NCBI RefSeq assembly: GCF_001426345.1
Contig: NZ_LMEM01000009.1
Span: 264,540-328,539 of the forward strand
Reading direction: 5' to 3'
Source: Devosia sp. Root436
GTDB taxonomy: Bacteria; Pseudomonadota; Alphaproteobacteria; Rhizobiales; Devosiaceae
Length of the DNA: 64,000 nucleotides
Positions within the stretch are counted from its first letter, which is position 1. Each line of letters starts with the position of its first letter. A program made the position numbers and the translations under genes. Positions 22,181 to 41,450 of this stretch are shown here, one piece after another. Below the pieces are notes generated by a model. The model worked only from the letters and a program-made list of their open reading frames with translations. It was not told where the DNA came from and did not search any database.

Positions 22181-22188
22181 CGGATGGA

Positions 22189-23233: not shown

Positions 23234-23293
23234 ACCACACAACGCCCATAGAACGGGCCTTTTTTGACGATGGTACAGGCCAATTCGAGCGGC

Positions 23294-23334
23294 AATCCGC
23301 CAGGCTCGCCCCCGCCTTGGCGGAAATCCGCCAG
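23294..23334 (-). promoter_or_regulatory. Candidate enhancer sites for the DctD-like activator
   Basis: Direct repeats AATCCGCCAG at 23294-23303 and 23325-23334 lie 31 bp (about three helical turns) apart. An inverted copy, TTGGCGGA, sits at 23318-23325. They lie about 60-100 bp upstream of the sigma-54 promoter, where activator sites are expected. Confidence 0.55.
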
Positions 23335-23342
23335 CTTGGACG

Positions 23343-24677
23343 CTAGCGGCTGATCTCGGCCGGCACTCTCAGGCCATAGCGGGCGATCTTTTCGTTGAGC
23401 GTGCGGCGGGCCAGGCCAAGCCGCTCGGCAGCATCGGCCGTGGAGCCGCCGGCATCGCGCAGCGCCTGTTCGATGACGACAGCCTCGAAACGCGCGACCC
23501 GGTCGGCAAGGCTTTCGCCTGCCCCGCCTTCGCCGGGAACCACGCCGCGCTGCATCACGCCCAGCACGGTCCGCTCGGCCAGCGCCTTGAGTTCGCGCAC
23601 ATTGCCCGGCCATTCCGAAGATTCGAGCCCCGGCGGCACGCGATGGGTGCCCGTCTCGGGCAGGCGGAACCGCCGTTCCGCATTGGCGGCGAACAGGTTG
23701 AACAGCAGCGGCACGTCTTCGCGGCGCTGGCGCAGCGGCGGCACCGCCAGTTCCACCGTGGCGAGCCTGAAATAGAGGTCCGGCCGGAACCGGCCCGCCG
23801 CGCTCTCGGCCCTGAGGTCGGTCTTGCTGGCGGCAATGAAGCGCACATCGATGGGCCGTGACACATTGGTCCCCAGCGGCTCGACGCTCCGCTCCTGGAT
23901 GGCGCGCAGCACCTTGGCCTGCAGCGCCAGCGGCATGGACTCGATCTCGTCGAGAAATACCGTGCCGCCCCTGGCATATTCGAGCTTGCCGACGCGCTCG
24001 CCCGCCGCCCCGGTAAAGGCCCCCCGGGCATGGCCGAACATCTCGCTCTCGAACACCGTCTCGGGAATGGCGGCGCAATTGATGGCCACGAACTGGCCCT
24101 GGGCCCGGCTGCCGAAATCGTGCAAAGCCCGGGCAATGACTTCCTTGCCGGTGCCGGTCTCTCCGGTCACCAGCACGTCCACGTCGATATCGGCCAGTTG
24201 CAGGATGGATTGGCGCAAAGTCGCCATGGCCGGCGCCAGGCCGACCAGCCGGTCCTCGAGTTCGGTGCCCCCTGCCACCCGGCGCAGCCGGGCGAGTTCG
24301 CGCCCGAGCCTCCGGCGCTCGGTAGCCCGATCGAGGATCGCCACCAGATGCTCGGCATCATAGGGCTTTTCGATGAAATCATGCGCGCCGCGACGCATCG
24401 CATCGACGGCCAGGGCCACATCGCCATGGCCGGTGAGCAGCACTACCGGCAGGTCCGGCGCCGCGGCGCGATAGTGGTTCAGCACTGCGATCCCATCCAG
24501 CCCCGGCATGCGGACATCGGTGACCACGCAGTCGACACCGGCCGGGTCCACCCGCTCCAGCGCCCGTTGCGCGGCGGTGTAGCTGGTGACGCTGAACCCC
24601 GAAACGCCCAGCCATTCCTCTGCTGCGGCACACAATTCGGCCTCGTCGTCGATGAATACGATGCTGCCCCTGCTCAT
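23343..24677 (-). CDS. DctD-like sigma-54-dependent response regulator
   Basis: This 444-residue protein has a receiver domain (1-120; VFIDDE, phospho-acceptor Asp in VVTDVRMPG, Lys in IEKPY), an AAA+ domain (about 145-370; GETGTGKE Walker A, GAFTGA sigma-54 loop, GTVFLDEIESM Walker B) and a Fis-type C-terminal helix-turn-helix (AAERLGLARRTLNEKI). It should activate the neighbouring sigma-54 promoter at 23218. It overlaps the sensor kinase gene by 4 bp. Family resemblance is to DctD, but the target here is a TAXI TRAP system. Confidence 0.95.
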   Translation of the reverse strand: MSRGSIVFIDDEAELCAAAEEWLGVSGFSVTSYTAAQRALERVDPAGVDCVVTDVRMPGLDGIAVLNHYRAAAPDLPVVLLTGHGDVALAVDAMRRGAHDFIEKPYDAEHLVAILDRATERRRLGRELARLRRVAGGTELEDRLVGLAPAMATLRQSILQLADIDVDVLVTGETGTGKEVIARALHDFGSRAQGQFVAINCAAIPETVFESEMFGHARGAFTGAAGERVGKLEYARGGTVFLDEIESMPLALQAKVLRAIQERSVEPLGTNVSRPIDVRFIAASKTDLRAESAAGRFRPDLYFRLATVELAVPPLRQRREDVPLLFNLFAANAERRFRLPETGTHRVPPGLESSEWPGNVRELKALAERTVLGVMQRGVVPGEGGAGESLADRVARFEAVVIEQALRDAGGSTADAAERLGLARRTLNEKIARYGLRVPAEISR

Positions 24678-26602: not shown

Positions 26603-26680
26603 TTCGCGGATAGACAGACCCTCCAACGCAGTATAATTTTTTGGACAAATGCCCGATTTGTTCCAATTTTGATCCTGGTC

Positions 26681-27571
26681 ATGAACGAGACAAACGTAAG
26701 CGCTTCCGTTTCCTCTTCCTTATCCAGGCCGTTCTGGACGCGTTTCGCGGCGGCGGCGCGCGACCTGTCGCCCTTCTGCCTGGGTGTGGATCCGTCGCGC
26801 GAAGTGCTCGCCGACTGGGGTCTCGAGGCCGATATCGATGGGCTGCGCCGGTTCTGCGCCGGCGTCCTCGAATCCGCCAGTGAGCATGTTGCCGTCGTCA
26901 AGCCTCAGGTCGCCTTCTTCGAGGCGTTCGGCCCCGCCGGCATGGAAATCCTGCAGTCCTTCATGCGCGATGCGCGCGCCGCGGGCCTGCTGGTCATCGC
27001 CGATGCCAAGCGCGGCGATGTCGGCTCCACCATGGATGCCTATGGACAGGCCTGGCTCGGCGACGATGCCCCCTTTGCCTGCGACGCCGTCACCATCAGC
27101 CCCTATCTGGGCCTGGGCGCCTACAAGAACTTCCTCGAACGCGCCGCCGATACCGGCACCGGCGTCTTTGTCGTGGTGCGCTCCTCCAATCCTGAAGCGG
27201 CGGAGCTGCAGGACGCGCTGGTGAATGGCAAAACTATTGCCGACCATCTGGCCGATCAGATTTCCGCCTTCAACCAGGACCGGCTCGACCGCTTCGGCAA
27301 TGGTCCGGTCGGTGCCGTGGTGGGGGCTACGCTTGGCGCTGCTGCCGCGCAGACCATCGCCGCTCTGCCGACCTCGCTCTTCCTCGTTCCCGGTCTGGGG
27401 GCGCAGGGTGCCACTTTCGCCGATGTCGCCAACCAGTTTGGTGACGCGGTCGATCGTGCTGTTCCGTCCGCCTCCCGTTCGGTTCTGTCGTTTGGCAGGA
27501 ACCCGCAAGCCTTTCGCGGCGCACTGCAACGCCACGTCGAGGATGCACGCCGGATAATGCGGCTCGCCTGA
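26681..27571 (+). CDS. pyrF: Orotidine 5'-phosphate decarboxylase, type 2
   Basis: This 296-residue enzyme converts OMP to UMP. It shows CLGVDPS near the N-terminus, VKPQVAFFEAFG, the catalytic Lys/Asp cluster VIADAKRGDVGST (about 108-120) and VVVRSSNPEA. Length and motifs match the type 2 family, well known from actinobacteria and myxobacteria, rather than the shorter type 1 enzyme usual in proteobacteria. ATG at 26681 was chosen; an upstream TTG is possible. It is divergent from the sensor kinase and lies ahead of a TRAP transporter and other pyr genes. Confidence 0.94.
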   Translation: MNETNVSASVSSSLSRPFWTRFAAAARDLSPFCLGVDPSREVLADWGLEADIDGLRRFCAGVLESASEHVAVVKPQVAFFEAFGPAGMEILQSFMRDARAAGLLVIADAKRGDVGSTMDAYGQAWLGDDAPFACDAVTISPYLGLGAYKNFLERAADTGTGVFVVVRSSNPEAAELQDALVNGKTIADHLADQISAFNQDRLDRFGNGPVGAVVGATLGAAAAQTIAALPTSLFLVPGLGAQGATFADVANQFGDAVDRAVPSASRSVLSFGRNPQAFRGALQRHVEDARRIMRLA

Positions 27572-27757
27572 CCAGCCCGATCACACTCCGCACGCCACGG
27601 ACGCCTGTCCAAAAATTGATACGGCACCGATATGGCCGTGGAGCGTGGTAGCCCAGGCCGACGAACACCGGTCAGTAGGCCGCTGAGAACCCGTCGGCGC
27701 CGTCAGCGGCAAGTCTCGATTAATACAGGCATCACCATGATTCTTCGGCCGGTTCCG

Positions 27758-27802
27758 GCCTCAAAATGCGCTTGCCCCCCGCGACCACGCGCATTTTGAG
27801 GC
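27758..27802. other. 14-bp perfect inverted repeat upstream of dctP
   Basis: GCCTCAAAATGCGC and its exact complement are separated by 17 nt. Directly next to it begins the terminator-like hairpin at 27801. It could be RNA structure or a paired operator. Confidence 0.6.
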
Positions 27803-27838
27803 GTTCGTGCTAACGTCGTCGCAGCACGAATGCCTTTT
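27801..27838 (+). terminator. Terminator-like hairpin upstream of dctP
   Basis: GCGTTCGTGCT (27801-27811) pairs with AGCACGAATGC (27823-27833; one mismatch) and is followed by CTTTTT. It could end pyrF transcripts, end a small RNA, or attenuate dctPQM. Confidence 0.6.
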
Positions 27839-27993
27839 TCGCGGGCGAACTGCTGCCCTGTCACGCGCTCAATCGCCTAAACCTTAGCCAGTTTTGCGTT
27901 CTGTCTATTTTTTTAGATTACTTCTTGACTCCATCCCGACAGGACACGTTTACTCGGCATCGGTTCGCATGAAGGTACCCCTCGGAGGAAGAG

Positions 27994-29010
27994 ATGACTG
28001 TTAACAGACTTGCCCTGGCCATTTTTGGCGCTGCCATTGCCCTGGGCACGACGCCGCTTGCTGCCCAGGAATTTACCGCCCGCATCGGGCATCTGGAATC
28101 CGACCAGCAGCCGCGCCATGCCGGCCTCGTCATGGTCGCCGACCTGGTCAAGGAGCGCACCGGTGGGGCCGTGGAGTTCGAACTCTTCCCCGCCGGCCAG
28201 TTGGGTCAGGCCCGCGAAATGAACGAGGGCGTCCAGCTCGGCCTCATCGAAGGCACGGTCTCGCCTGCTGCATTCCTCGCCGGTTTCAACCCCGCCGTTT
28301 CCATTCTCGACGTTCCCTTCCTTTACCCATCGGATCGTGAAAAAGCCGCGGCCCTGCGCGGCGGCGCCTTTGGTGATGCCGTGTTGGCCAGCTTCGAGCC
28401 GCTCGGCTTCCACGCTGTGGCCCTCTGGCCCAACGGCCGCAAGGCCATGACCTCCAACAACGAGATCGCCAATGTCGAGGATTTCGCCGGACAGCGCTTC
28501 CGCGTCATGGACTCAGCAGTATTGATCGAGCAGTTCAACGCCGTGGGCGCCTCGGCCATTGCCCTGCCCTTCGGTGAACTCTACACCGCCCTGCAGACCG
28601 GCGTTGTCGATGGTCAGGAAAACGCCCTCGATACCATCGCCACCATGAAGTACCAGGAAGTGCAGCAGCACCTGCTCATTTCCGAGCACGGCGCCAATGA
28701 GGACGTGATCCTGTTCAACCCCGCCTGGTGGAATTCCCTGCCGGCCGAATACCAGACCATCATCGTCGACGCTTTTGCCGAGGTTCGCCCTCAGGTCGAA
28801 CAGATCAAGGAGGCCGCGCAGGCCACCGCGCTCGAAACCATCAAGCAGAGCGGCATCGACATCGTCGAACTCGACGACGCGCAGCGTGCCGCCTTCCGCG
28901 AAGTCATGTATGGTCCGGCGCGTGATGCCTACCTTGCCGGTGCCGGCGACGCAGGCAAGACCATCGTGGACGTCTACGAAGCTCAATACGCCGAAATCGT
29001 CGGCCAGTAA
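27994..29010 (+). CDS. dctP: TRAP transporter solute-binding protein (DctP family)
   Basis: This 338-residue periplasmic protein has a signal peptide (residues 1-24, ending PLAAQ). It carries the DctP features: ELFPAGQLGQAREMNEGVQ, the substrate-arginine region GQRFRVMDSAV and ALQTGVVDGQENALDTI. GGAGGAAGAG precedes the ATG. It is followed by a hairpin, then dctQ and dctM. DctP proteins bind organic acids; given pyrF on one side and pyrE/pyrC/pyrDK on the other, orotate or a pyrimidine breakdown product is an attractive but unproven ligand. Confidence 0.94.
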   Translation: MTVNRLALAIFGAAIALGTTPLAAQEFTARIGHLESDQQPRHAGLVMVADLVKERTGGAVEFELFPAGQLGQAREMNEGVQLGLIEGTVSPAAFLAGFNPAVSILDVPFLYPSDREKAAALRGGAFGDAVLASFEPLGFHAVALWPNGRKAMTSNNEIANVEDFAGQRFRVMDSAVLIEQFNAVGASAIALPFGELYTALQTGVVDGQENALDTIATMKYQEVQQHLLISEHGANEDVILFNPAWWNSLPAEYQTIIVDAFAEVRPQVEQIKEAAQATALETIKQSGIDIVELDDAQRAAFREVMYGPARDAYLAGAGDAGKTIVDVYEAQYAEIVGQ

Positions 29011-29019
29011 TCGCCTTCT

Positions 29020-29045
29020 GCCGGTGCCTTTCGCGAGGCACCGGC
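29020..29045 (+). other. GC-rich hairpin between dctP and dctQ
   Basis: Perfect 9-bp stem GCCGGTGCC with an 8-nt loop, starting 10 nt after the dctP stop, with no T-tract. Confidence 0.75.
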
Positions 29046-29064
29046 CCATCGGATTGGATTGTGA

Positions 29065-29571
29065 ATGGCTGCCTTCCTGCGCTTCCTCCGCTCGCTTGAA
29101 CATACGCTGCTGGCCAGTGTGATGTTGATCATGGTGCTGATGTATAGCGGGTCCATCGCCGTCCGCGAGCTGGTTCCGTCCTATGCGCGCTATGTCGTCT
29201 GGGTCGATGAAGCCACCCGCTATATGATGGTATGGCTGGTTTTCCTGGCCCTCGGCATAGCTCTGGAGCGCGGTCGGCAGATCGCCATGACCAGCTATCT
29301 CGAAATGATGCCACCGCGCGTCCAGTTCGCACTCCGCAAGATCATCGACCTGACAGGGCTGCTCTTCAGCCTTTACATTACCTGGGTGGGCGTCGAGATG
29401 ACCATGGTCATCGCCGGGACCGGGCAACGCAGCCCGACGCTGGGCATTTCCACCGCCTATCTCTATCTGGCGCTGCCCGCCGGCTTCGCCCTTCTGGCGC
29501 TCCGCTATGGCCTGAGCCTCGCCGGCATCATCGACCGCTGGTCCAACAGCACTCACGAAGGGGCCGTCTGA
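29065..29571 (+). CDS. dctQ: TRAP transporter small permease subunit
   Basis: This 168-residue inner-membrane protein has four predicted helices and the family-typical WVDEATRYMMVWLVFLALGI (about 50-70). It is the small partner of DctM; the two genes are 3 bp apart. No strong ribosome site precedes the ATG at 29065. Confidence 0.92.
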   Translation: MAAFLRFLRSLEHTLLASVMLIMVLMYSGSIAVRELVPSYARYVVWVDEATRYMMVWLVFLALGIALERGRQIAMTSYLEMMPPRVQFALRKIIDLTGLLFSLYITWVGVEMTMVIAGTGQRSPTLGISTAYLYLALPAGFALLALRYGLSLAGIIDRWSNSTHEGAV

Positions 29572-29574
29572 GCC

Positions 29575-30858
29575 ATGATCGTCATTGCTTTGTTTATCGG
29601 CGCTTTGGCGCTGCTCTTCCTCGGCTTCGAAATGCTGCTGGTGCTCGGCCTGCCCGGCATCCTGACCAAGGAAATCTTCTATTCGGCCGTGCCGGAAGTC
29701 CTCTACGGCCAGAAGCTGGTGGGGGGCATCAATCACTCCACGCTCATGGCCATTCCATTTTTTATCCTGGCCGCCGAGATCATGGCGCGTGGCCACATCG
29801 CCCGACAGCTGACCAATGTTGTCAGGGCCTTTCTCGGCCATCATTCCGGCGGCCTGGGCCTCAGCATGGTGGCAGCCTCCGCCGCCTTCGGCTCGGTCTC
29901 CGGCTCCGCGCCCGCCACCGTGGCCGCACTGGGCCGCATCCTCTACCCGGAGATGAAGGCGGAGGGCTACAGCGACAAGTTCTCGCTGGGCCTCCTCATC
30001 TCCTCGGCCGAAGTTGCCCTGCTCATTCCCCCATCCATCACGCTGATCATCTACGCCTGGTTGACCGGCACATCGGTAGCGGCTTTGTTCGCCGCGGGCC
30101 TAGTCATTGGGCTCTTCCTGTCGGCTGCCTTCGCCGTCTACGTGCTGATTTACGCCCGCCGCAACGGCCTCACGGGCACCGCGCCGCTGCCATTCATCGA
30201 CCGCTGGCGCGCAGTGCGCAAGGGACTGTGGGCGCTTGGCCTGCCAGTCGTGCTGCTGGGCGGCATCTATTCGGGCATTTTCACGCCCACCGAGGCGGCC
30301 GCTGCCAGCGTCGTCTACGCCCTGTTGATCGAACTGCTGGTCTATCGCCAGTTGAAATTGCCGGACGTCTCCCGCATCGCCACCAGCGCGGCGATCACCA
30401 CCGCGTCCATCTTCGTGCTGCTCGCCGTGGGGAGCCTCGTAGCCTACTTCATCACCCTGGCGCAGGTGCCCAGCATGGTGATCGGCTTCATGGAGAGCAT
30501 CGAGGCCAACTGGATCGTCTTCCTGCTGATCGTCAACCTGCTGTTCCTGGTGGCCGGTATGTTCATCGATCCCAATTCGACCCTGCTGATCCTGGTGCCG
30601 GCGCTCTATCCGGTTGCCGTCAGCTTCGGCATCGATCCGATCCACTTTGGCATCATCGTCTGCCTCAATACCTGTATCGGCATGATCACCCCGCCCTTCG
30701 GCCTCGATATCTTCGTGGCGTCCTCGACGCTGAACGAGTCCGTCGCCAAGATCATCAGTGGCGTCGGCCCATTCATCGTGGTCAATCTGCTGACCCTGGC
30801 CGTGGTGACGTATGTGCCCAACCTGTCGATGTTCCTGCCGCGCCTGCTGGCGCCATAG
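29575..30858 (+). CDS. dctM: TRAP transporter large permease subunit
   Basis: This 427-residue inner-membrane protein has about 12 helices and DctM landmarks: AIPFFILAAEIMARG, AAFGSVSGSAPATVAALGRI, LLIPPSITLIIYAW and GIFTPTEAAAASVVYAL. It forms the ion-driven channel with DctQ and DctP. The gene ends 22 bp before a strong bidirectional terminator. Confidence 0.95.
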   Translation: MIVIALFIGALALLFLGFEMLLVLGLPGILTKEIFYSAVPEVLYGQKLVGGINHSTLMAIPFFILAAEIMARGHIARQLTNVVRAFLGHHSGGLGLSMVAASAAFGSVSGSAPATVAALGRILYPEMKAEGYSDKFSLGLLISSAEVALLIPPSITLIIYAWLTGTSVAALFAAGLVIGLFLSAAFAVYVLIYARRNGLTGTAPLPFIDRWRAVRKGLWALGLPVVLLGGIYSGIFTPTEAAAASVVYALLIELLVYRQLKLPDVSRIATSAAITTASIFVLLAVGSLVAYFITLAQVPSMVIGFMESIEANWIVFLLIVNLLFLVAGMFIDPNSTLLILVPALYPVAVSFGIDPIHFGIIVCLNTCIGMITPPFGLDIFVASSTLNESVAKIISGVGPFIVVNLLTLAVVTYVPNLSMFLPRLLAP

Positions 30859-30880
30859 CCGAAACGTTACAGCCGGACAA

Positions 30881-30910
30881 AAAAGAGGCGGCCGCTTGGC
30901 CGCCTCTTTT
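30881..30910. terminator. Bidirectional intrinsic terminator
   Basis: AAAAGAGGCGGCC-GCTT-GGCCGCCTCTTTT: a perfect 13-bp stem with T-runs on both strands, between the convergent ends of dctM and pyrE. Confidence 0.93.
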
Positions 30911-30928
30911 GCTTAACTGTACCGCGTC

Positions 30929-31636
30929 TCAGGAGGCGGCCGGCGCGAATTCGGCGATCCCGCCATGCGCCGAGGACCAGGCGGCCGGGTTGTTGAGGAA
31001 GCTCTCGACTTCATCGAGCGTCGTCTTGTCGAAGTGCTGCATCTCGCGCGCCACTTCCAGCACGTCCCACCAGGTCGCCAGATAATGCAGCTCGACGCCG
31101 AGCTCCTTCATCAGCTCGGCGCTGTTGGGGAAGATGTCGTAGTAGAACACCACGAAGCAGTGATCGACCTTGGCGCCGGCCCGCCGCAACGCATCGGCAA
31201 ACATCACCTTGGAGCGGCCATCCGTCGCCAGGTCTTCCACCAGCAGCGTACGGGCATCGGCCACCACTTCGCCTTCGATCTGGGCATTGCGGCCGAAGCC
31301 CTTGGCCTTCTTGCGCACATACTGCATCGGCAGCATCAGCTTGTCGGCGATCCAGGCGGCGAAGGGAATGCCGGCCGTTTCACCGCCGGTGATCACGTCG
31401 ATCGATTCAAAGCCGATTTCCGCCGTGATGGTCTGGGCCGCCATGTCCATCAGGGCCGACCGCAGCCGGGGGTAGGAAATCAGCTTGCGGCAGTCGACAT
31501 AGACCGGGCTCGCCCAGCCGGAGGTGAAAACGAATGGCTGGCTCGCGTTGAAATGAACCGCGTTGATTTCCAGCATCATGCGGGCGGTCTGGCGCGCGAT
31601 TGCCTTCTTCTCTCCGCTCAGGCGTAATGTGCTCAC
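30929..31636 (-). CDS. pyrE: Orotate phosphoribosyltransferase
   Basis: This enzyme of about 235 residues joins orotate and PRPP to give OMP. It has [18 protein letters not shown] near the N-terminus, [16 protein letters not shown], the catalytic loop VRKKAKGFG and the PRPP-binding segment [13 protein letters not shown]. The GTG at 31636 was chosen because GAGGAAACC lies just ahead; an ATG 15 nt upstream (31651) has a poor ribosome site but is possible. It is the last gene of pyrK-pyrD-amidohydrolase-pyrC-pyrE. Confidence 0.93.
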
Positions 31637-31740
31637 TGTAGGTTTCCTCATATGGGGGCCACAACAGGTCGCGCCAAATACCAGCCGTCGGACGCAAACG
31701 CCGCGGTGCAACTGGTTCGAGTTTGAGTGCAACCGCCTCG

Positions 31741-32781
31741 CTATAGCTGCTGCTGTAAAGTCCAGTCAACGGAAGTGCCCCCGAAGAGAGGGATTATTTC
31801 GTCGTTTTCGACAGCAATGGACGCTTCGACCATATGCGGCGCCTTGCGATACGTAACGCGCGCCTCGCTCGGGGCAAAACCATAGAAGGCCGGACCGTTG
31901 AGCGACGCGAAAGCCTCGAAGCGGTCAAGCGCCCCGTCTTCGTCGAACACCTTGAGATAGGCCTCCACCGCCACCGGCGCGCTGAACACGCCGGCGCAGC
32001 CGCAATCGGCCTCCTTCAGCCGCCGCACATGCGGCGCCGTATCCGTGCCGAGGAAATAATGCGACGATCCGCTGGTCGCCGCCGCTCGCAGCGCCTCCTG
32101 GTGGCGCGCCCGCTTGAGCACAGGCAGGCAATAGAGATGCGGCCGCAGCCCACCCTCGAACAGCGCATTGCGATTGTAGAGCAGATGCTGCGGCGTGATC
32201 GTGGCGGCGACATTCGCCCCCCTGCTGGCAACGAATTCGGCGCCTTCCTGGGTCGTGATATGCTCCATCACCACCCGCAGCTTCGGAAACCGCTCCAGCA
32301 CCGGGATCAGCACCTGGTCGATGAACAGCTTCTCCCGGTCGAAGATATCCACATGCGGCCCCACAAGCTCGCCATGCGTCAGCAGCGGTATGCCATGCTC
32401 GCTCATCGCCGCGAACACCGGGTCGAGCCTGTCGATCGTGCTGACGCCATGCTGCGCATTGGTCGTGGCATGCGCCGGATAGAGCTTGGCCGCCGCGAAG
32501 ATACCGTCCCGATGGCCCGCCACAAGGTCATTGGCATCGGTATGGTCTGTCAGGTAGCAGGTCATCATCGGCGTGAAGTCGAGCCCTTCGGGCACCGCGG
32601 CCAGAACGCGCTCGCGATAGTCGGACGCCATTTTCGCGCTGGTCACCGGCGGTACCAGGTTGGGCATGACGATGGCCCTGGCGAACTGCCGCGCCGTATA
32701 GGGCACCACCCGGCGCAAGACCGCTCCGTCGCGAAAATGCACATGCAGGTCGACGGGGCGGCGAAGAGTGATCGAGGTCAT
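31741..32781 (-). CDS. pyrC: Dihydroorotase, E. coli PyrC type
   Basis: This 346-residue zinc enzyme interconverts dihydroorotate and N-carbamoyl-L-aspartate. It shows HVHFRDG, the carbamylated-lysine segment [20 protein letters not shown] and GTDTAPH, and aligns over its length with the homodimeric E. coli enzyme. Its start is 1 bp after the amidohydrolase stop (TGACATG). Placement behind an N-carbamoyl hydrolase and a PyrD/PyrK pair allows it to run in the hydrolytic direction. Confidence 0.95.
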
Positions 32782-32782
32782 G

Positions 32783-34048
32783 TCAGTTTCCAGCGGTAAC
32801 CACGCCATGCAGGATATCGACTCCCCTCAGGAAGTCGGCGATTTCCATGGCCTCGTCAGGATTATGCGATCCGTTGCGATTACGCACGAAAATCATGCCC
32901 GAGGGCACGCCGGCATTGGCGAAAACCGCTGCATCGTGGCCCGCCCCGCTGGGCAACACCTCCAGCGGCAGCCCGCAACGCTCGGTCATTTCGCTCAGCC
33001 GGGCGATGATCCCGTCATCCATGCGCGCCGGCTCGGCAACCACCCGCTCGTCAAATTCGAACCGCACGCCCCGCTGGGCCGCCACGGCGCGGCATTCGCT
33101 GCGGAACAGCTCGTAGAACGCCTCCAGCGTGTCCCGGCTCTGGCTGCGGATTTCGAAGCTAAAGCCGATCTCGCCCGGAATCCGGCTGATGGCATGGTCG
33201 GCGGCGTCGGTGCTGACCACCCCGCTGGTGACCACCAGATCCAGTCCGCGCTCCAACAGCGTGCGCCAGTGTTCGTCGAGCCGGCCGATCAGCTCGGCAA
33301 AGGCGAAGACCGGGTCCTTGCGCAGCCAGCGCGGAATGGCGCCCGAATGGCCGGCCTCGCCCCGGCATGTCACCTTGCGATGCCGTATATTGCCGCGAAT
33401 CCCGCTCACGACGCTGGTGGGCAGATCTCGCGCCACCATCACCGGCCCCTGCTCGATATGCAGTTCGAGATAGCTCAGCGCCCGGCTTGTATCGAACAGC
33501 ACGGCCCCCTCGCGGATCGGCGCCAGGTCGATGCCCGTGGCTTCCATCGCCTCGCCCAGCGTGCGTCCCTTGCCGCGCGACCGCGCCTCCAGATCCGCCG
33601 CATCGAGTATGCCGAACAGCACGCGCGAACCGATATTGGCCCGCCCGTAAAACGCGCTTTCCTCGCCGCGCAGCATGATGACGCGCACCGGATGGGTCAG
33701 TTTCCGGCCCGACTGCCGGATGCGCCCGAGGCACAGCAGCCCGGCAATGATCCCGGCCGCCCCGTCGAAATTGCCCCCCTGCGGCACCGAGTCGGCATGG
33801 CTGCCGATATAGTTTGCGGGCGCCGTGCCGTCATCCTCGGGCAGCCGCACGATCAGGTTGGCGACACTGTCCGCCTCGACCACCAGCCCCAGGGCCTCGG
33901 CCGCCTCCCGGAAGATGGCCAGCGCCGCATCCTCGCCTTCGCCATAACACTCGCGAGTGATGCCGACACCGTCGCCCGTGGCGTCCGCCAGTCGGTCGAA
34001 AAGTTGGGTAGCCAGCAATTCGCTGTCGAAAACCGGTGCCGCTGTCAT
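32783..34048 (-). CDS. M20 amidohydrolase (HyuC/AllC family), probable N-carbamoyl-L-aspartate hydrolase
   Basis: This 421-residue metalloenzyme of the N-carbamoyl-amino-acid/allantoate amidohydrolase family has metal-ligand motifs IGSHADSVPQGGNFDGAAG, LRGEESAF, LELHIEQGPV and the late SHNPDEAMEIADF. Such enzymes release CO2 and NH3 from N-carbamoyl amino acids or ureido acids. Sitting between pyrD and pyrC with 4-bp and near-abutting junctions, its most likely substrate is N-carbamoyl-L-aspartate, giving aspartate (ureidosuccinase reaction). Allantoate or beta-ureidopropionate remain alternatives. The start ATG overlaps the pyrD stop. Confidence 0.88.
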   Translation of the reverse strand: MTAAPVFDSELLATQLFDRLADATGDGVGITRECYGEGEDAALAIFREAAEALGLVVEADSVANLIVRLPEDDGTAPANYIGSHADSVPQGGNFDGAAGIIAGLLCLGRIRQSGRKLTHPVRVIMLRGEESAFYGRANIGSRVLFGILDAADLEARSRGKGRTLGEAMEATGIDLAPIREGAVLFDTSRALSYLELHIEQGPVMVARDLPTSVVSGIRGNIRHRKVTCRGEAGHSGAIPRWLRKDPVFAFAELIGRLDEHWRTLLERGLDLVVTSGVVSTDAADHAISRIPGEIGFSFEIRSQSRDTLEAFYELFRSECRAVAAQRGVRFEFDERVVAEPARMDDGIIARLSEMTERCGLPLEVLPSGAGHDAAVFANAGVPSGMIFVRNRNGSHNPDEAMEIADFLRGVDILHGVVTAGN

Positions 34049-34983
34049 GGCAGGACTTCTGTGTCGCCGAGCCGCAGCCCCGCATCGCTGACGGCGCCGG
34101 TCAGATCGGCCACCCGGCCGACGCCCTTGCGCGCGCAATAGGCTGCCAGGCCATCGATCACCTGCGTCATCGCATGCGGCTCTACGAAGGTCGCCGTGCC
34201 CACTTGCACGGCCGCCGCGCCCGCCAGCATGAATTCCACCGCGTCATTCGCGTCCGCAATCCCGCCGCAACCAATGACCGGAATCGCCACGGCGCGAGCG
34301 CATTGATAGGTCATGCGGACGATGATCGGCTTGACCGCCGGCCCCGACAATCCGCCCATGATATTGCCCAGCGTCGGGCGCCGCGTCTCGGTATCGATCG
34401 ACATGGCCAGGATCGTATTGGCCACCACCAGCGCATCGGCCCCCGCATCCTCGGCGGCGCGCGCCACCGCGACCACGTCGCCGGTATTGGGTGTCAGCTT
34501 GGCCCAGAGCGGCAGGCTGCTCGCTGCGCGCAGCTTGCGCATCACCTGGCTGGTCGAAGCGGCCGACATGGCAAAGGCATGCCCGTCTTCCTCGATATTG
34601 GGGCAGGAGATATTGGCCTCGATCGCCGCTATGCCGGGCAATTGCAGCCGGCCCGCCAGCACGGCAAAAGCGTCTGCCGTCGGCGCCGAGATCGACACCA
34701 CCAGCGGGCTGGCGAACTGCCGGTAGAAAGGCAGCGTCTCGCTGAGGAAATAGTCCAGGCCCTTGGAGGGAATGCCGATGGAATTGAGCAGCCCATTGCT
34801 GATCTCGGCGACGCGCGGCACCCTGTTGCCGCTGCGCAGTTCGGCGGTAATGGTCTTGGTGACCATCGCCCCCAGCCGATTGAAATCGACAACATCCGCC
34901 AGGCCTTCGGCAAAGGTGCCGGAGGCGGGCATGACCGGGTTGGCCAGTGCCAGCCCGCCGATCTTTACGCCCATATCTACCAT
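34045..34983 (-). CDS. pyrD: Dihydroorotate dehydrogenase, class 1B catalytic subunit
   Basis: This 312-residue cytoplasmic FMN enzyme matches the class 1B (PyrDB) type, not the membrane class 2 enzyme usual in proteobacteria. Evidence: no N-terminal membrane extension, start MVDMGVKIGGLALANPVM, PASGTFAEG, EANISCPNIEEDG with the catalytic cysteine, AKLTPNTGD and MGGLSGPAVKPI. Class 1B works with PyrK and NAD, so it can run in either direction. It overlaps pyrK by 7 bp. Confidence 0.94.
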   Translation of the reverse strand: MVDMGVKIGGLALANPVMPASGTFAEGLADVVDFNRLGAMVTKTITAELRSGNRVPRVAEISNGLLNSIGIPSKGLDYFLSETLPFYRQFASPLVVSISAPTADAFAVLAGRLQLPGIAAIEANISCPNIEEDGHAFAMSAASTSQVMRKLRAASSLPLWAKLTPNTGDVVAVARAAEDAGADALVVANTILAMSIDTETRRPTLGNIMGGLSGPAVKPIIVRMTYQCARAVAIPVIGCGGIADANDAVEFMLAGAAAVQVGTATFVEPHAMTQVIDGLAAYCARKGVGRVADLTGAVSDAGLRLGDTEVLP

Positions 34984-35834
34984 GACGTGGCCTCGGCCAG
35001 CGGGAACACCGGCCCGTCCCAGCACACGCGGCGGCTCACGGTCTCGCCCCCCACCCGGAAGTCGCGGACGCAGCAATGGCACATGCCCAGGCCGCAGGCC
35101 ATCTGCTGCTCCATCGCCACCTGCCCGGCAATGCCCAGCTCGTCGCCCAGGCGCTGCATCAGCAGCATCAGCCGGTTGGAACCGCAGGTGAAGAACGCGT
35201 CGGCATGACCCTCGGTGTGAATGCGCCGCAGCAGGCGCTCGACATGATCGACGCTGCTGCTGCCATCGCTGTCGAGCACGATCTCGATCCGGGCGCCGAT
35301 AGCCGCGAAACGCGGCACCGACAATACCTGGTCCTGGTCGCGCGCGCTGATCACGGCGGTCACGCCGATATTGCGGGCAGCCGCCATTTCGGCCAGCGGC
35401 GCCAGCGTCGCCAGGCCCACGCCGCGCCCCAGCACCACAATGTGGCGCCAGTCCGGCTCCAGCGCGAAGCCAACGCCAAGCGGCCCCAGCATCGACAGAT
35501 AATCCCCAGCCACCAGGCTGGCGAGACCACGCGTACCGGCCCCGCTGACCTTGTAGAGGAATTCCACCACGCCACTCTGCGGGTCGGCGCGATAGGTGCT
35601 CATCGGGCGGCGCAGGTAGGGCGCGTCCTCGCCCGTCGTCGGGCATTGCAGATGAAAGAATTGTCCGGCCACGGCATTGCGGGCCGGCCCAGGCGCTTCG
35701 ACCACCAGCAGGTTGTAGCTATCGTTGACCCTCTCGTTGGAGAGGACCAGCGCCCGGACATCGTCCACGCCGCTGCCGGGAAGCCTCAGGGCATTTCCGG
35801 CAGTATTGGCGGCCATTGTTCTGGCCGCAGTCAT
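34977..35834 (-). CDS. pyrK: Dihydroorotate dehydrogenase electron-transfer subunit
   Basis: This FAD/[2Fe-2S] protein of about 285 residues carries electrons between NAD(H) and PyrDB. It shows the FAD motif RRPMSTYRA, a nucleotide-binding VVLGRGVGLATLAPLAEM and the cluster cysteines CGLGMCHCC plus VCWDGPVF. The start is uncertain: ATG at 35834 is used and 35816 is possible. An ATG at 35846 lies inside the 16-bp operator, so it is unlikely. First gene of the pyr operon, directly behind a TTGACA (35880-35885) and the shared palindrome. Confidence 0.9.
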   Translation of the reverse strand: MTAARTMAANTAGNALRLPGSGVDDVRALVLSNERVNDSYNLLVVEAPGPARNAVAGQFFHLQCPTTGEDAPYLRRPMSTYRADPQSGVVEFLYKVSGAGTRGLASLVAGDYLSMLGPLGVGFALEPDWRHIVVLGRGVGLATLAPLAEMAAARNIGVTAVISARDQDQVLSVPRFAAIGARIEIVLDSDGSSSVDHVERLLRRIHTEGHADAFFTCGSNRLMLLMQRLGDELGIAGQVAMEQQMACGLGMCHCCVRDFRVGGETVSRRVCWDGPVFPLAEATSW

Positions 35835-35842
35835 CGCAATCT

Positions 35843-35858
35843 GTCTCATTTTTGAGAC
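35843..35858. promoter_or_regulatory. Operator O1, GTCTCA-N4-TGAGAC, at the pyrK promoter
   Basis: GTCTCA-TTTT-TGAGAC overlaps the probable -10/+1 region of the pyrK promoter (TTGACA at 35880-35885 on the minus strand). The half-sites and spacer length are identical to those of the site at 37328-37343. It is probably bound by the XRE regulator encoded next to it. Confidence 0.75.
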
Positions 35859-35899
35859 GATCCCAGAAGGCAAGACTTTTGTCAATAAGCCTGGCGTCG

Positions 35900-36790
35900 T
35901 CAGTCCGCTTCAACCGCGCTGTCCAGAATATTGCGCAGTATCTGCGCCCCATCCGCCCCCTTATGCGCGGTCTCCCACTGCCGCGTCAGGGTGTCCTTGA
36001 AATAGCTCACCGCCTCGGGTGCCGAGGTCACCAGCGCGATGCCCGAGGAGACATTGGGCTGGTCGCCCAGGCGATAGGGGCTGAGCGTGACCGCCGAGGT
36101 ATCCTGCCGGTCATACACCTGGAAGGTCTGCGTCGGCGGCTGCCCGTCGACAATACCCACCTGCACCCCAATGGGCTGGCGCAGCATGGTCTGGTATAGC
36201 AGTTCCAGTTCCCGCCGGGCGGCTGCCCGCCGCTCCCGCTGCACCTCCGCCGGCAGGTTGAACCGCCCGATCAGCCCGAGCCGCAGGAATCGCTCCAGGT
36301 CCTGCGACCCCACAATGCTCACCACCGGCACGCCACGGCGCGTCGCGGTGGAGCGCCGCTCTTCCAGCAGGGCGATGATCTTGCCGACGAAATCCACCTG
36401 CTTGGCCCGGTCCGGCGCCGCATCCGGGATCGCTTCCACCAGCATGGTCCGCAGGTGTGCCATATAGTCCTCGGACAGCAGAAGCGACGACATGGGCGAA
36501 AAATTGCCCAGCAGCTGCACCGAGTTTTCCTCGAGTTGGCGCATGCGCTCGAAGAAGGCGAGGGCGTTATTGTAATATTCGACGCCCACCCCCAGCAGCG
36601 ACGGCAACGACACCCCCAGCAGCGTCGACAGCGCCCCCAGGATTTGGATTTTGACAATCTCGCCCTTTTCCAGCCGGTACACCGCGGCGCGCGAAATACC
36701 CAGGCGCTCGGCCACATCCTCCGCGCTCAATTCCTTGCCCAGCCGGTAGGCCCGCAGGCGCTGACCGACCTCCTCATACTGAATGTTCAT
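35900..36790 (-). CDS. XRE-family transcriptional regulator of the pyr/ABC regulon
   Basis: This 296-residue protein has an N-terminal Cro/C1 helix-turn-helix (about residues 6-60: VGQRLRAYRLGKELSAEDVA, then ERLGISRAAVYRLEKGE) and a C-terminal domain of about 220 residues that I do not recognise, probably ligand-binding. ATG at 36790 follows AAGGGTGGCGGA. Identical palindromes stand at the pyrK promoter and at the ABC operon promoter, and a weaker copy lies 20 bp before its own gene. It is therefore the natural candidate for a local repressor of both operons. Confidence 0.85.
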   Translation of the reverse strand: MNIQYEEVGQRLRAYRLGKELSAEDVAERLGISRAAVYRLEKGEIVKIQILGALSTLLGVSLPSLLGVGVEYYNNALAFFERMRQLEENSVQLLGNFSPMSSLLLSEDYMAHLRTMLVEAIPDAAPDRAKQVDFVGKIIALLEERRSTATRRGVPVVSIVGSQDLERFLRLGLIGRFNLPAEVQRERRAAARRELELLYQTMLRQPIGVQVGIVDGQPPTQTFQVYDRQDTSAVTLSPYRLGDQPNVSSGIALVTSAPEAVSYFKDTLTRQWETAHKGADGAQILRNILDSAVEAD

Positions 36791-36810: not shown

Positions 36811-36826
36811 GTCTAATTTTTGATAT
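36811..36826. promoter_or_regulatory. Degenerate operator O3 upstream of the XRE gene
   Basis: GTCTAATTTTTGATAT matches O1 (GTCTCATTTTTGAGAC) at 13 of 16 positions. It lies between the divergent XRE and small hypothetical genes, which suggests weaker, autoregulatory binding. Confidence 0.5.
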
Positions 36827-36880: not shown

Positions 36881-37192
36881 ATGGAGCAGTTGTGTTCCTG
36901 GCTTGAAGGCCAAAGCGGTGGGGTTCGAACCTATATCGAATTTCAGAAGAAATCTGCCCATCTGGCGCAGAAAGATCAGGCCAATGGCTCGCTCTACATC
37001 CTGTTGGGCATGGTCGCGCAGCGCTTCAGCAATCGCTATGACGGCGAACCGCTTCCGGTCGATACGGCCACGGCTGCACTCAAGGAATTTGCCGCTCTGC
37101 TGCGGCGCGCCAGCGACCTGGCCGATAAGGATGCCGAACTGCAGCTGCGTTTTCTCAATGAAATCGCCACGCTCGACCTGACGACAGCCTAG
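36881..37192 (+). CDS. Small hypothetical protein beside the XRE regulator
   Basis: I do not recognise this 103-residue protein. It starts MEQLCSWLEGQ, is mostly helical in appearance, lacks membrane segments and cysteine motifs, and ends with LQLRFLNEIATLDLTTA. The ATG at 36881 was chosen because GGGAGAG lies 6-8 nt upstream; the frame stays open 45 nt further. It is divergent from the XRE gene across a 90-bp gap holding a degenerate operator, so it may be co-regulated or modulate the regulator. Confidence 0.65.
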   Translation: MEQLCSWLEGQSGGVRTYIEFQKKSAHLAQKDQANGSLYILLGMVAQRFSNRYDGEPLPVDTATAALKEFAALLRRASDLADKDAELQLRFLNEIATLDLTTA

Positions 37193-37306: not shown

Positions 37307-37343
37307 TTGACATTCACCCGGACGTTCGTCTCACTATTGAGAC
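37307..37343 (+). promoter_or_regulatory. Promoter and operator O2 of the ABC/nucleoside phosphorylase operon
   Basis: TTGACA at 37307-37312 is a perfect -35. GTCTCA-CTAT-TGAGAC at 37328-37343 covers the -10 region and is the same palindrome as at pyrK, extended here to 7-bp arms (C...G). Binding here would block RNA polymerase. Confidence 0.75.
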
Positions 37344-37370: not shown

Positions 37371-38117
37371 GTGTTGATCGAAGTTCAGGGCGTAACCAAG
37401 ACATTCGTTTCGCGTGGGGGTGAACAGGTCGTCGCCCTCGCCGAAACCACGCTGGATGTGCAGCAGGGCGAGTTCCTCACCCTGATCGGCCCATCCGGCT
37501 GCGGCAAGTCCACCTTGCTGCGCATGCTCGCCGGCCTGGTCGAGCCGACCAGCGGCCGCATCGTCTGGCAGGGCACCGCGCCGGCGCGCGGCAGCGAGGT
37601 CGGCTTCGTCTTCCAGGAGCCGGTGCTGCTGCCCTGGCTCAGCGTGCTCGACAATGTGCGTTTCCCCCTCGATACCTTCGGCGTCGATCGCCGCGCCGGC
37701 GATGAAGCCGCCCGGCAGACGCTCGAACTGGTGGGCCTCAAGGATTTTGCCCGCGCCCTGCCCAAGGAATTGTCGGGCGGCATGAAGCAGCGCGCCGCCA
37801 TCGCCCGCGCCCTGGTCTACAAGCCCCGCCTGGTGCTGATGGACGAGCCGTTCAGCGCTCTCGACCTGCTGACCCGCGACCGCATGAACGACGAATTGCT
37901 GGCCATCCGCGCCGAAGTCGGCGCCACTATCGTCTTCGTCACCCATTCCGTCGAAGAAGCGGCCTATCTGTCCGATCGAGTCGCCGTCATGTCGGCCCGG
38001 CCGGGACAAATCCGCACCATCCACACCATCGACCTGCCCGCCCCGCGCGGTGAGGCGGTCAAGGATTTGCCGGCCTTCCACGCCTGGCTGTCGCAACTGC
38101 GGCGGGACCTGCGATGA
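37371..38117 (+). CDS. ABC transporter ATPase (nitrate/taurine/riboflavin-precursor type)
   Basis: This 248-residue ATPase has Walker [10 protein letters not shown], signature LSGGMKQRAAIARAL, Walker B LVLMDEPFSALD and H-loop VTHSVEEA. It belongs to the SsuB/TauB/ThiZ-like class that serves NMT1/THI5-type binding proteins. The start is GTG at 37371, 11 nt after AGGAGG. It is first in an operon of ATPase, permease, nucleoside phosphorylase, binding protein and second permease, with operator O2 ahead of it. Confidence 0.9.
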   Translation: MLIEVQGVTKTFVSRGGEQVVALAETTLDVQQGEFLTLIGPSGCGKSTLLRMLAGLVEPTSGRIVWQGTAPARGSEVGFVFQEPVLLPWLSVLDNVRFPLDTFGVDRRAGDEAARQTLELVGLKDFARALPKELSGGMKQRAAIARALVYKPRLVLMDEPFSALDLLTRDRMNDELLAIRAEVGATIVFVTHSVEEAAYLSDRVAVMSARPGQIRTIHTIDLPAPRGEAVKDLPAFHAWLSQLRRDLR

Positions 38118-39656: not shown

Positions 39657-40661
39657 ATGTCCCTGTTGTCGAAAATCGCTACCGTAGCCGCCACGCTGGC
39701 GGCGCTCGCCCTGGGTGCCACCGGCTCGATGGCCCAGGATACCCAGAAGGTTACCATCCAGATCGATGGTGCCGCCGTACCCTATTACCTGCCGCTCTAC
39801 GTGGCCGATAAATACGGCTACTTCGCCGATGAAGGCCTCGAGGTCGAATTCCTCTACGCCAACGCCGCCGATATCCTGAACAACATCGCCGCCGGCAATG
39901 TGCAATTCGGCTTCCCCAATGGCGACGGCGTCATCGCCGCCCGCGCCAATGGCCTGCCGGTCAAGGTGGTCCACACCACCTACCAGAACGGCATCGGCGC
40001 CACCCTGTTCAAGACCGCCAGCGGCATCACCTCGCCCGCCGATCTCGTCGGCAAGAAAGTCGCCGTCACCAGCTATGGCAGCCCCAACTACATCCAGTTG
40101 CAGGTGATGATGGCCCAGGTCGGCAAGTCCGTCGACGACGTCAATGTCGAAGTGGTCGGCACCGGCGCCATTCTCGACGCGCTCAAGGCCGATCAGGTCG
40201 ACGCCATTGTCTTCTCCATGCTCCGCTATTACGCGCTGCAGGCCGAAGGCATCGATGTCGGCATGATCCGCTCCGATGACTACCTGCCCAGCAAGGGCAA
40301 TGTGCTTGTCACCTCCGAGAGCTATCTCGCCGAAAACGGCCCCGCCGTTGCCGGCTTCATCGCCGCCCTCGACAAGGCCATCGAGCATATCGCCAATGGC
40401 AGCGTCGAGACCGAGGTCGCCATGGCCGTCGCCGACTACACGCCGACCTTCGCCGGCCAGGAAGCGCTGGTCTCCGAGATCATCTCCGAGGTCTTCCTCA
40501 AGTCGCTGTGGCAGAGCCCCGACACCGCTGCCCATGAGCTAGGTTACGGCAATATCGCGTCCTGGCAGACCACGATCGATACGGCCGCCGAATACCAGAT
40601 CATCCCCCAGAGCTTCGATGCCGCCGACCTCGTGGTCGAGCTGCCGTCCTCGATCCAGTAG
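39657..40661 (+). CDS. ABC transporter substrate-binding protein, NMT1/THI5-like
   Basis: This 334-residue periplasmic protein has a signal peptide (residues 1-26, ending GSMAQ). The mature start is typical of NMT1/SsuA-like proteins: VTIQIDGAAVPYYLPLYVAD, then KYGYFADEGLEVEFLYA. Relatives bind thiamine or riboflavin precursors, sulfonates or nitrate; here a pyrimidine-type ligand is suggested by operon and regulon context. AAAGGAAAC precedes the ATG. Confidence 0.9.
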   Translation: MSLLSKIATVAATLAALALGATGSMAQDTQKVTIQIDGAAVPYYLPLYVADKYGYFADEGLEVEFLYANAADILNNIAAGNVQFGFPNGDGVIAARANGLPVKVVHTTYQNGIGATLFKTASGITSPADLVGKKVAVTSYGSPNYIQLQVMMAQVGKSVDDVNVEVVGTGAILDALKADQVDAIVFSMLRYYALQAEGIDVGMIRSDDYLPSKGNVLVTSESYLAENGPAVAGFIAALDKAIEHIANGSVETEVAMAVADYTPTFAGQEALVSEIISEVFLKSLWQSPDTAAHELGYGNIASWQTTIDTAAEYQIIPQSFDAADLVVELPSSIQ

Positions 40662-40706: not shown

Positions 40707-41450
40707 ATGCGCCATATCTTCTTCCTCGCCGCCTTCCTGGTGCTGTGGTCGCTGGCTCTGGTTGTCTTCCAGGTCCCTGCCTATCTCGTCCCCTCGCCCC
40801 AGCAATTGCTGGCCAAGGCCTGGTTCCTGCTGACGCGGGCCGACCTGCTCACGCATACCGCCGTCACCCTGCTCGAAATCCTGCTCGGCTACGCCATCGG
40901 CTGTCTGGTCGGCATGGCCGCCGCCCTGCTGTTTCACCGCGCCCCTCTCGTTGAGGATATCCTCAGCCCGCTCATCGTCTTCATCCAGACCGCCCCCAAG
41001 ATCGCCATCGCGCCGCTGCTGCTGCTCTGGCTGGGCCTCGACATGACGCCCAAGGTCGTCCTCGTCGCCATCGTGACCTTCTTTCCAGTCATGTCGGCCA
41101 TGCTCAGCGCCCTGCGCTCCATGCCCGAGCATCTCGACGTTCTGGCGCGCACCCTGCGCATGTCGACGCTGCAGCGCATCTGGCGCATCGAACTGCCCCA
41201 GTCGCTGCCACTGCTGTTTTCCGGCCTCAAGGTCGGCGCTACCCTGGCGGTCACCGCCGCGGTCATCGGCGAGCTCATGGGCACCCGCGCCGGCCTCGGC
41301 TACCTGCTCGCTCTGGGCCAGGAAACGGCCGATACCCAGCTCGTGCTGGTCAGCGTCCTGGTCCTGTCGCTGCTGGGTTATCTGGTCTACCTCGCCATCC
41401 TCGCCCTGGAACGCCGCCTGCTGCGCTGGCACGACAGCGCCACGCCCTGA
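40707..41450 (+). CDS. ABC transporter permease (second of two)
   Basis: This 247-residue inner-membrane protein has six predicted helices and the same family region as its partner (IVFIQTAPKIAIAPLLLLWL, then RIELPQSLPLLFSGLKVG). Its sequence differs enough from the first permease to suggest an old duplication and a heterodimeric pore. It ends the operon; the next gene converges on it after 9 bp. Confidence 0.92.
   Translation: MRHIFFLAAFLVLWSLALVVFQVPAYLVPSPQQLLAKAWFLLTRADLLTHTAVTLLEILLGYAIGCLVGMAAALLFHRAPLVEDILSPLIVFIQTAPKIAIAPLLLLWLGLDMTPKVVLVAIVTFFPVMSAMLSALRSMPEHLDVLARTLRMSTLQRIWRIELPQSLPLLFSGLKVGATLAVTAAVIGELMGTRAGLGYLLALGQETADTQLVLVSVLVLSLLGYLVYLAILALERRLLRWHDSATP

What the first reader, a model, noticed from the sequence alone, without database searches (positions are those of the whole stretch)
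26681..36790. Possible inducible orotate degradation/salvage regulon (pyrF, TRAP, pyrK-pyrD1B-amidohydrolase-pyrC-pyrE)
Seen: type 2 pyrF, a DctPQM importer, and a tight minus-strand operon pyrK, class 1B pyrD, HyuC/AllC-type amidohydrolase, E. coli-type pyrC and pyrE, with 4-8 bp overlaps or near-abutting junctions. Known: NAD-linked PyrDB/PyrK plus dihydroorotase plus N-carbamoyl-L-aspartate hydrolase is the route by which orotate fermenters turn orotate into aspartate, CO2 and NH3. Inference: this bacterium imports orotate (or a relative) and either breaks it down for nitrogen or salvages it through PyrE/PyrF. The amidohydrolase inside a pyr operon would defeat biosynthesis, which points to catabolism.
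Basis: partly seen in the sequence, partly recalled or inferred. Interest (0 to 1): 0.88.

Follow-up and report, generated by a model that had tools for sequence, protein, structure and literature searches.

The report
Orotate-eating regulon with nucleoside arm
A Devosia-like bacterium carries a set of genes, shared with many other bacteria and with Klebsiella plasmids (beside the lactose genes in six of seven inspected), that is predicted to import orotate, a pyrimidine precursor also present in milk, and would break it down to aspartate and ammonia, which points to a likely gene for ureidosuccinase, an enzyme activity known from older biochemistry.

Summary
Comparison favours its orotate-catabolism reading and corrects parts of it. 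(1) DctP's closest solved relative, 4NN3, was crystallised with orotic acid. (2) pyrK, class 1B pyrD and an M20 amidohydrolase are linked in 70 of 79 loci (alpha-, beta-, gammaproteobacteria, Bacillota), with TRAP, MFS or ABC importers. (3) The palindrome TCTCA-N4-TGAGA occurs 40 times in these loci against 0-2 in shuffles, at cluster promoters; the window holds the genome's only two perfect long-form copies, beside an XRE regulator with a predicted PLD-fold domain. (4) Klebsiella plasmids carry MFS-pyrK-pyrD-M20-pyrC, mostly beside lacZY where inspected. (5) M20 residue 240, Met in solved relatives, is Arg or Lys in 62 of 68 cluster copies. (6) pyrB, class 2 pyrD and type 1 pyrF exist elsewhere, but the window has the genome's only OPRTase found and only dihydroorotase keeping its metal motif; the family's native versions are missing here, so cluster genes appear to have replaced them. 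pyrF is not shown to belong. The second operator fronts an ABC transporter plus a uridine-phosphorylase-like enzyme, perhaps an orotidine arm. All enzyme activities are predicted.

The parts
26681..27571 (+). pyrF, type 2 OMP decarboxylase; membership in the regulon not shown
   Evidence: TIGR02127 276.8 bits, cut-off 110.6; a type 1 pyrF exists at C10
27994..29010 (+). dctP, TRAP binding protein, predicted to bind orotate
   Evidence: nearest solved chain 4NN3, E 1.6e-126, bound to orotic acid (PMC11668362 passages)
29065..29571 (+). dctQ, small TRAP permease
   Evidence: weak NCBIfam match; position between dctP and dctM, repeated in 16 of 26 loci
29575..30858 (+). dctM, large TRAP permease
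   Evidence: TIGR00786 389.5 bits, cut-off 268.45
30881..30910 (.). terminator-like hairpin between convergent dctM and pyrE
   Evidence: read from the sequence
30929..31651 (-). pyrE, orotate phosphoribosyltransferase; only one found in the genome
   Evidence: NF001729 387.6 bits, cut-off 245
31741..32781 (-). pyrC, dimeric-type dihydroorotase
   Evidence: TIGR00856 410.2 bits, cut-off 292.95; DLHVHF motif present
32783..34048 (-). M20 amidohydrolase, predicted N-carbamoyl-L-aspartate hydrolase (ureidosuccinase)
   Evidence: TIGR01879 267.1 bits, cut-off 204; Arg240
34045..34983 (-). pyrD, class 1B dihydroorotate dehydrogenase
   Evidence: NF005574 345.9 bits, cut-off 269
34977..35816 (-). 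pyrK, Fe-S/flavin electron-transfer subunit (start could be upstream)
   Evidence: PF10418 41.4 bits, cut-off 23.9; Cys 241, 246, 249, 265 invariant in 16 rows
35843..35858 (.). perfect operator GTCTCATTTTTGAGAC at the pyrK promoter
35900..36790 (-). XRE regulator with a predicted PLD-fold C-terminal domain
   Evidence: HTH_31/HTH_3; model pLDDT 93.3
36811..36826 (.). degenerate palindrome (3 mismatches) before the regulator gene; unproven
   Evidence: where 3-mismatch sites are no more than chance
36881..37192 (+). small protein of unknown function whose relatives sit beside the same cluster elsewhere
   Evidence: no Pfam or NCBIfam match
37328..37343 (.). perfect operator GTCTCACTATTGAGAC at the ABC/phosphorylase promoter
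37371..38117 (+). ABC transporter ATPase
   Evidence: PF00005
38114..38863 (+). ABC permease 1
   Evidence: PF00528
38854..39633 (+). PNP/uridine-phosphorylase-like enzyme, possibly acting on orotidine
   Evidence: PF01048 98.1 bits; TIGR01718 124.7 bits, below its cut-off 280.3
39657..40661 (+). NMT1/THI5-type binding protein
   Evidence: PF09084 139.2 bits; nearest solved chain 3IX1, a pyrimidine binder
40707..41450 (+). ABC permease 2
   Evidence: PF00528

Best explanation
This region is a conserved gene cluster, with a shared promoter palindrome that its XRE regulator likely binds, that is predicted to import orotate and would break it down through dihydroorotate and N-carbamoyl-L-aspartate to aspartate, CO2 and ammonia, while its pyrC and pyrE likely also serve normal pyrimidine synthesis in this genome. 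Predicted steps: DctPQM takes up orotate; NADH-linked PyrK-PyrD runs in the reducing direction; PyrC opens dihydroorotate; the M20 enzyme removes the carbamoyl group; PyrE can divert orotate to nucleotides. Shown by sequence: gene content, operators, conservation, copy numbers. Inferred: every substrate, the direction of PyrKD, repression by the XRE protein and its relief by orotate or a product.
For: DctP's nearest solved relative binds orotic acid and shares a Lys that the paper singles out in 4NN3. pyrD is linked to pyrK in 79 of 79 and M20 in 70 of 79 loci; all 70 M20-linked PyrDs fall in one clade of 79 rows, 100/94. TCTCA-N4-TGAGA: 40 sites in 79 loci against 0-2 in ten shuffles, 34 of them just upstream of cluster genes; two perfect copies in 3.9 Mb, both here. 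M20 residue 240 is Arg in 60 and Lys in 2 of 68 cluster copies, Met in the five solved chains aligned and in the genome's other M20 enzyme of this type looked at. The genome has pyrB, class 2 pyrD and type 1 pyrF elsewhere. Klebsiella and P. putida plasmids carry the same set with a dihydroorotase of either family.
Against: No activity was measured. Nine of 79 loci lack M20, and pyrC (27) or a class I dihydroorotase-like gene (3) lies nearby in only 29 of 69 M20 loci outside the window. 51 of 79 loci have no exact operator, among them 15 of 17 named MFS loci. The window's dctP has no good operator (sequence). PyrK scores below the curated PyrK cut-offs. If pyrC is also the biosynthetic enzyme, the M20 enzyme would waste its intermediate unless regulated.
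Confidence: 0.82

Rival explanations
1. Orotate salvage only: orotate is imported and made into UMP by PyrE and PyrF; PyrKD and PyrC are ordinary biosynthetic duplicates, and the amidohydrolase is a bystander or overflow valve.
For: pyrE is linked in 47 of 79 loci and is the only OPRTase found here.
Against: M20 is linked more often (70 of 79) than pyrE (47) or pyrC (29); 9 loci with the ABC/phosphorylase set and no TRAP have no pyrE nearby; the Klebsiella plasmid clusters viewed have pyrK, pyrD, M20 and pyrC but no annotated pyrE.
Confidence: 0.07
2. Uracil or thymine catabolism: PyrKD acts as a dihydropyrimidine dehydrogenase feeding the reductive pathway, and the M20 enzyme is a beta-ureidopropionase.
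For: The genome has a dihydropyrimidinase with an M20 gene at C10 but only two DHO_dh-domain genes, so no PreA was found.
Against: PyrD passes class 1B models and fails PreA (142.8 vs 335), keeps the NISCPN motif; 4NN3 ligand is orotic acid; pyrC and pyrE are neighbours, not dihydropyrimidinase, in the clusters where such genes occur (exceptions L219, L261, L262 have class I amidohydrolases of uncertain specificity).
Confidence: 0.06
3. Ordinary housekeeping pyrimidine operon with an unrelated amidohydrolase and transporter.
For: pyrC and pyrE are the only motif-intact dihydroorotase and only OPRTase found; both native types are missing here and in G242.
Against: Class 2 pyrD, type 1 pyrF and pyrB lie elsewhere; the M20 linkage repeats across phyla; 19 of 19 other genomes of the family show no PyrK at E 1e-10.
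Confidence: 0.03

Closest known systems
Orotate fermentation of Clostridium (Zymobacterium) oroticum (recalled, nothing read)
   Same: Orotate to dihydroorotate to carbamoyl-aspartate to aspartate, with an NAD-linked dehydrogenase and ureidosuccinase
   Different: Here a regulated cluster with named genes, importers, operator and regulator, mostly in Proteobacteria; activities only predicted
Orotic-acid-binding TRAP protein 4NN3 of Maridesulfovibrio salexigens (PMC11668362, passages)
   Same: Window DctP matches it over 322 residues at E 1.6e-126 and shares its Lys at the Arg152 column
   Different: Binding not measured here; the gene neighbourhood of 4NN3 was not looked at
L. lactis PyrDB/PyrK (1EP1-1EP3)
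   Same: Class 1B fold family and NISCPN motif
   Different: Loop reads IPSKG where biosynthetic rows read LENPG or LQNPG; separate clade
AllC, N-carbamoyl-L-amino acid hydrolase and beta-ureidopropionase (1Z2L, 3N5F, 8C46)
   Same: M20 hydantoinase/carbamoylase family; carboxylate-binding Arg kept
   Different: Arg240 in place of Met; fails the AllC equivalog
Reaction modules of pyrimidine and purine metabolism (PMC4016543, passages)
   Same: Dehydrogenase, cyclic amidohydrolase, ureido-hydrolase logic
   Different: That paper treats orotate chemistry as biosynthetic in the passages seen

Membership tests
Class 1B dihydroorotate dehydrogenase (PyrD) | Curated model score | tested here: met
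   NF005574 345.9 vs 269; TIGR01037 294 vs 270
PyrK electron-transfer subunit | Fe-S domain with four Cys | tested here: met
   PF10418 above cut-off; four Cys invariant in 16 rows
PyrK electron-transfer subunit | NCBIfam PyrK equivalog cut-offs | tested here: not met
   best 119.2 vs 270
PreA dihydropyrimidine dehydrogenase | Equivalog cut-off | tested here: not met
   NF006183 142.8 vs 335
Orotate-specific TRAP binding protein | Binds orotate | not testable with these tools
   only homology to orotate-bound 4NN3
M20 hydantoinase/carbamoylase family | Curated model score | tested here: met
   TIGR01879 267.1 vs 204
AllC allantoate deiminase | Equivalog cut-off | tested here: not met
   TIGR03176 187.6 vs 597.75
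Ureidosuccinase (EC 3.5.1.7) | Hydrolysis of N-carbamoyl-L-aspartate | not testable with these tools
   inferred from context and Arg240
Dimeric dihydroorotase PyrC | Curated model score | tested here: met
   TIGR00856 410.2 vs 292.95
Orotate phosphoribosyltransferase PyrE | Curated model score | tested here: met
   NF001729 387.6 vs 245
Uridine phosphorylase | Equivalog cut-off | tested here: not met
   TIGR01718 124.7 vs 280.3
Phospholipase D fold (regulator C-terminal domain) | Fold match beyond the HTH domain | tested here: inconclusive

The most novel reading that the evidence does not exclude
The second operon is an orotidine pathway: the NMT1-type ABC transporter imports orotidine, the uridine-phosphorylase-like enzyme is an orotidine phosphorylase, phosphopentomutase (next to it in several clusters) recovers the sugar, and the freed orotate enters PyrKD, PyrC and the M20 enzyme. 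One XRE repressor with a PLD-fold sensor would control both arms. No description of such a pathway was found here's searches.
Probability: 0.4. Interest if true: 0.85.

Novelty: new variant of a known kind. Interest (0 to 1): 0.72.

Why it matters
Orotate breakdown is old biochemistry (recalled); the ten library searches made here found no description of its genes as a regulated system. This gives a testable gene for ureidosuccinase, a diagnostic operator and a residue to mutate. Its place beside lac genes on Klebsiella plasmids, 9 of 53 from milk, suggests a dairy-niche trait, since milk contains orotic acid. It also shows a catabolic cluster taking over housekeeping steps: in the two family members that carry it, the family's usual dihydroorotase and OPRTase are missing and cluster-type enzymes remain.

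Tried and rejected
Single-sequence model of DctP: pLDDT 38, not used. An extra Arg near the base site of the window's phosphorylase was considered as a carboxylate binder and dropped: it is not conserved in the 8 rows aligned. Control of the window's dctP by the operator is not claimed: the palindrome before it has 4 mismatches, and 3-mismatch sites in the window are no more than in shuffles (11 found, 17.9 expected). The genome also has a site matching the short core at C3:7283; one search showed no recognisable cluster gene there. Loss of both motif histidines in the pyrB-linked PyrC is read as inactivity, but it still passes the broad dihydroorotase model (338.1 vs 279.05), and a P. putida class I dihydroorotase reads Q-x-H, so motif loss is not proof. 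The orphan-enzyme survey PMC1940265 (passages) does not mention 3.5.1.7, so orphan status is not documented here. Papers: ten searches of an open-licence library listed no orotate catabolic operon and no orotidine phosphorylase in the rows shown; long lists were seen only in part; the EFI screen behind 4NN3 is not held.
Full report
Observation. The window lies in a 3.92-Mb genome (G000, contig C9, 16 contigs). Its M20 enzyme is 95% identical to one of Devosia sp. Root635. pyrK, pyrD, the amidohydrolase and pyrC are packed with overlaps or a 1-bp gap; pyrE follows after 89 bp.

Is there another pyrimidine set? pyrB with a pyrC-like partner (C1:334096-336299), a class 2 pyrD (C13:179555; TIGR01036 349.1 vs 200) and a type 1 pyrF (C10:246246; TIGR01740 179.3 vs 92.3) exist. 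The pyrB-linked PyrC passes the broad dihydroorotase model (338.1 vs 279.05) but lacks both histidines of the metal motif, as do all 21 rows of the family, so it is probably a non-catalytic partner (inference). The other TIGR00857 hits are a dihydropyrimidinase (C10; TIGR02033 596.4 vs 393.25), an ErtD hydantoin-5-propionate amidohydrolase (C2; NF058538 780.3 vs 600), a guanine-deaminase-like protein by eye, and the window's PyrC. TIGR00336 finds the window's PyrE, an adenine phosphoribosyltransferase, and prs- and comF-like proteins by eye.

Displacement. The other 19 genomes of the family in the sample (11 same genus, 8 other genera) all have a short PyrE (E 4.1e-92 or better; the query passes TIGR01367) and a PRK09060 dihydroorotase over its cut-off (771.9 bits or more). 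G000 and G242, the two family members with PyrK, have neither. Both have the long PyrE in the cluster and a dimeric PyrC, in the cluster in G000 and elsewhere in G242. So cluster-type PyrC and PyrE appear to have replaced the native enzymes. Told against: G222 has a dimeric PyrC besides PRK09060 and no PyrK; G122, a 94%-complete genome of another family with the cluster, shows no PyrE or PyrC of either kind over threshold.

Conservation. Of 397 genomes of the order 46 match PyrK at E 1e-10 or better, 26 of them (window included) at 2.4e-78 or better. Counting the window, the 25 relatives and the 53 named loci L216-L268, pyrD is linked in 79 of 79, M20 in 70, pyrE in 47, pyrC in 29, the regulator in 50 (some contigs are short). 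Without M20: L064, L225, L228, L238, L239, L246, L248, L267, L268. The 27 named loci left out (L269-L295, PyrK 39% identical or less) show no M20 hit. A PyrD tree puts all 70 M20-linked rows in one clade of 79 (100/94), with 25 rows of the biosynthetic kind and L269 outside; 3 label changes against a shuffled mean of 29.6, near-copies included. Carriers include Pelagibacterium, Pseudolabrys, Roseomonas, Roseibium, Celeribacter, Variovorax, Cupriavidus, Symbiopectobacterium, Lysinibacillus and Paenibacillus. In the Bacillota and Symbiopectobacterium loci the M20 is only 30-35% identical, and the four scored have Met at residue 240: perhaps a separate recruitment to the same slot.

Importers. 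TRAP genes are linked in 30 of 79; an MFS gene in 17 of the 53 named loci and in L057-L059 (one search did not query MFS in the unnamed loci); an NMT1-type ABC set in 14 of 79. The MFS protein tested is nearest the aromatic acid:H+ symporters but below their cut-off (328.8 vs 418.55). DctP's nearest solved chain is 4NN3. PMC11668362 (two passages) says that 4NN3 was bound to orotic acid and has a Lys where relatives have Arg152; by the alignment the window DctP has Lys there and keeps the Arg173 column. A review (PMC5812351, one passage) lists orotic acid among TRAP ligands found.

The amidohydrolase. It passes the broad carbamoylase model and fails AllC. Against 3N5F, 1Z2L, 4PXD, 5TP4 and 8C46 it keeps the Arg that binds the substrate carboxylate in 8C46 (Arg291; PMC10952681 passages; the numbering offset is mine) and has Arg240 where all five, and the C10 enzyme of this genome, have Met. 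Of 68 cluster copies scored (of 70 linked) 60 have Arg, 2 Lys, 2 Leu, 4 Met. This fits a substrate with a second carboxylate, N-carbamoyl-aspartate (inference). 4307 proteins match at E 1e-90 or better; names in the 120 listed are generic.

Plasmids. 74 plasmid records match the M20 protein at E 1e-80 or better, 53 of them Klebsiella. A 4.1-kb query from one of them finds 53 Klebsiella plasmids, all at 99% or more, and nothing in the E. coli collection at that sensitivity. Of seven Klebsiella records viewed, six have lacY and lacZ about 1.4 kb past the cluster and one (L302) has none in the stretch seen. Nine of the 53 give milk, raw milk or mastitis milk as source; many others are human samples. 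Orotic acid is measured in cow and ewe milk (PMC8614319, listing and abstract start). A P. putida plasmid has the same set with a class I dihydroorotase. The milk link is a suggestion.

The nucleoside arm. The operon behind the second operator has a binding protein nearest 3IX1, a pyrimidine binder, and a PNP/UP-family enzyme below the uridine phosphorylase cut-off that keeps the Gln/Arg pair and arginines of uridine phosphorylase (residue roles recalled). The enzyme is linked in 12 of 79 loci, 9 of them without TRAP. Phosphopentomutase is linked in three of those by search and adjacent in four more (the L070 protein confirmed, 473.2 vs 256). Since the other enzymes there act on orotate, orotidine is the most economical nucleoside (inference). 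Orotidine occurs in blood of uremic patients (PMC8745165, passages), so it is a real metabolite.

Verdict. A widespread, partly plasmid-borne orotate-catabolism regulon, here also the source of the cell's only OPRTase found and only motif-intact dihydroorotase. The chemistry is that of clostridial orotate fermentation (recalled); the genetic system, its regulator and operator, the likely ureidosuccinase and the nucleoside arm are the new parts.

Noticed in passing
window 36881-37192 (+); relatives in L216, L218, L229, L237, L244, L296, L297, L304: A conserved protein of about 103-109 aa with no Pfam or NCBIfam match sits beside the cluster in many loci, including the Klebsiella and P. putida plasmids; a search by the window copy alone found one relative.
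   Followed up: partly
L064:7242-8453 (-) and L246 at about 10040: pyrK-pyrD followed by an asparaginase-like gene (below the type II cut-off) instead of M20: perhaps a different pathway.
   Followed up: no
window 20014-26626 (-): A TAXI-type TRAP transporter and a dctB/dctD-like two-component pair, divergent from pyrF (by eye).
   Followed up: no
window 41460-43832 (-): An acetylornithine-deacetylase-like gene and an ectoine hydrolase DoeA-like gene (610.8 bits, cut-off 613), probably ectoine breakdown, not part of this system.
   Followed up: no
G000:C10:66000-85900 (L081): Dihydropyrimidinase, M20 and ABC genes of a reductive pyrimidine pathway, yet only two DHO_dh-domain genes in the genome and so no PreA found.
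   Followed up: partly
L304:11082-14122 (P. putida plasmid): A malic-enzyme-like gene and a chemotaxis receptor gene directly downstream of the cluster; the receptor could sense orotate.
   Followed up: no
G122 (L080): A genome with the cluster in which no PyrE or PyrC of either kind passed the thresholds used; unexplained, 94% complete.
   Followed up: no
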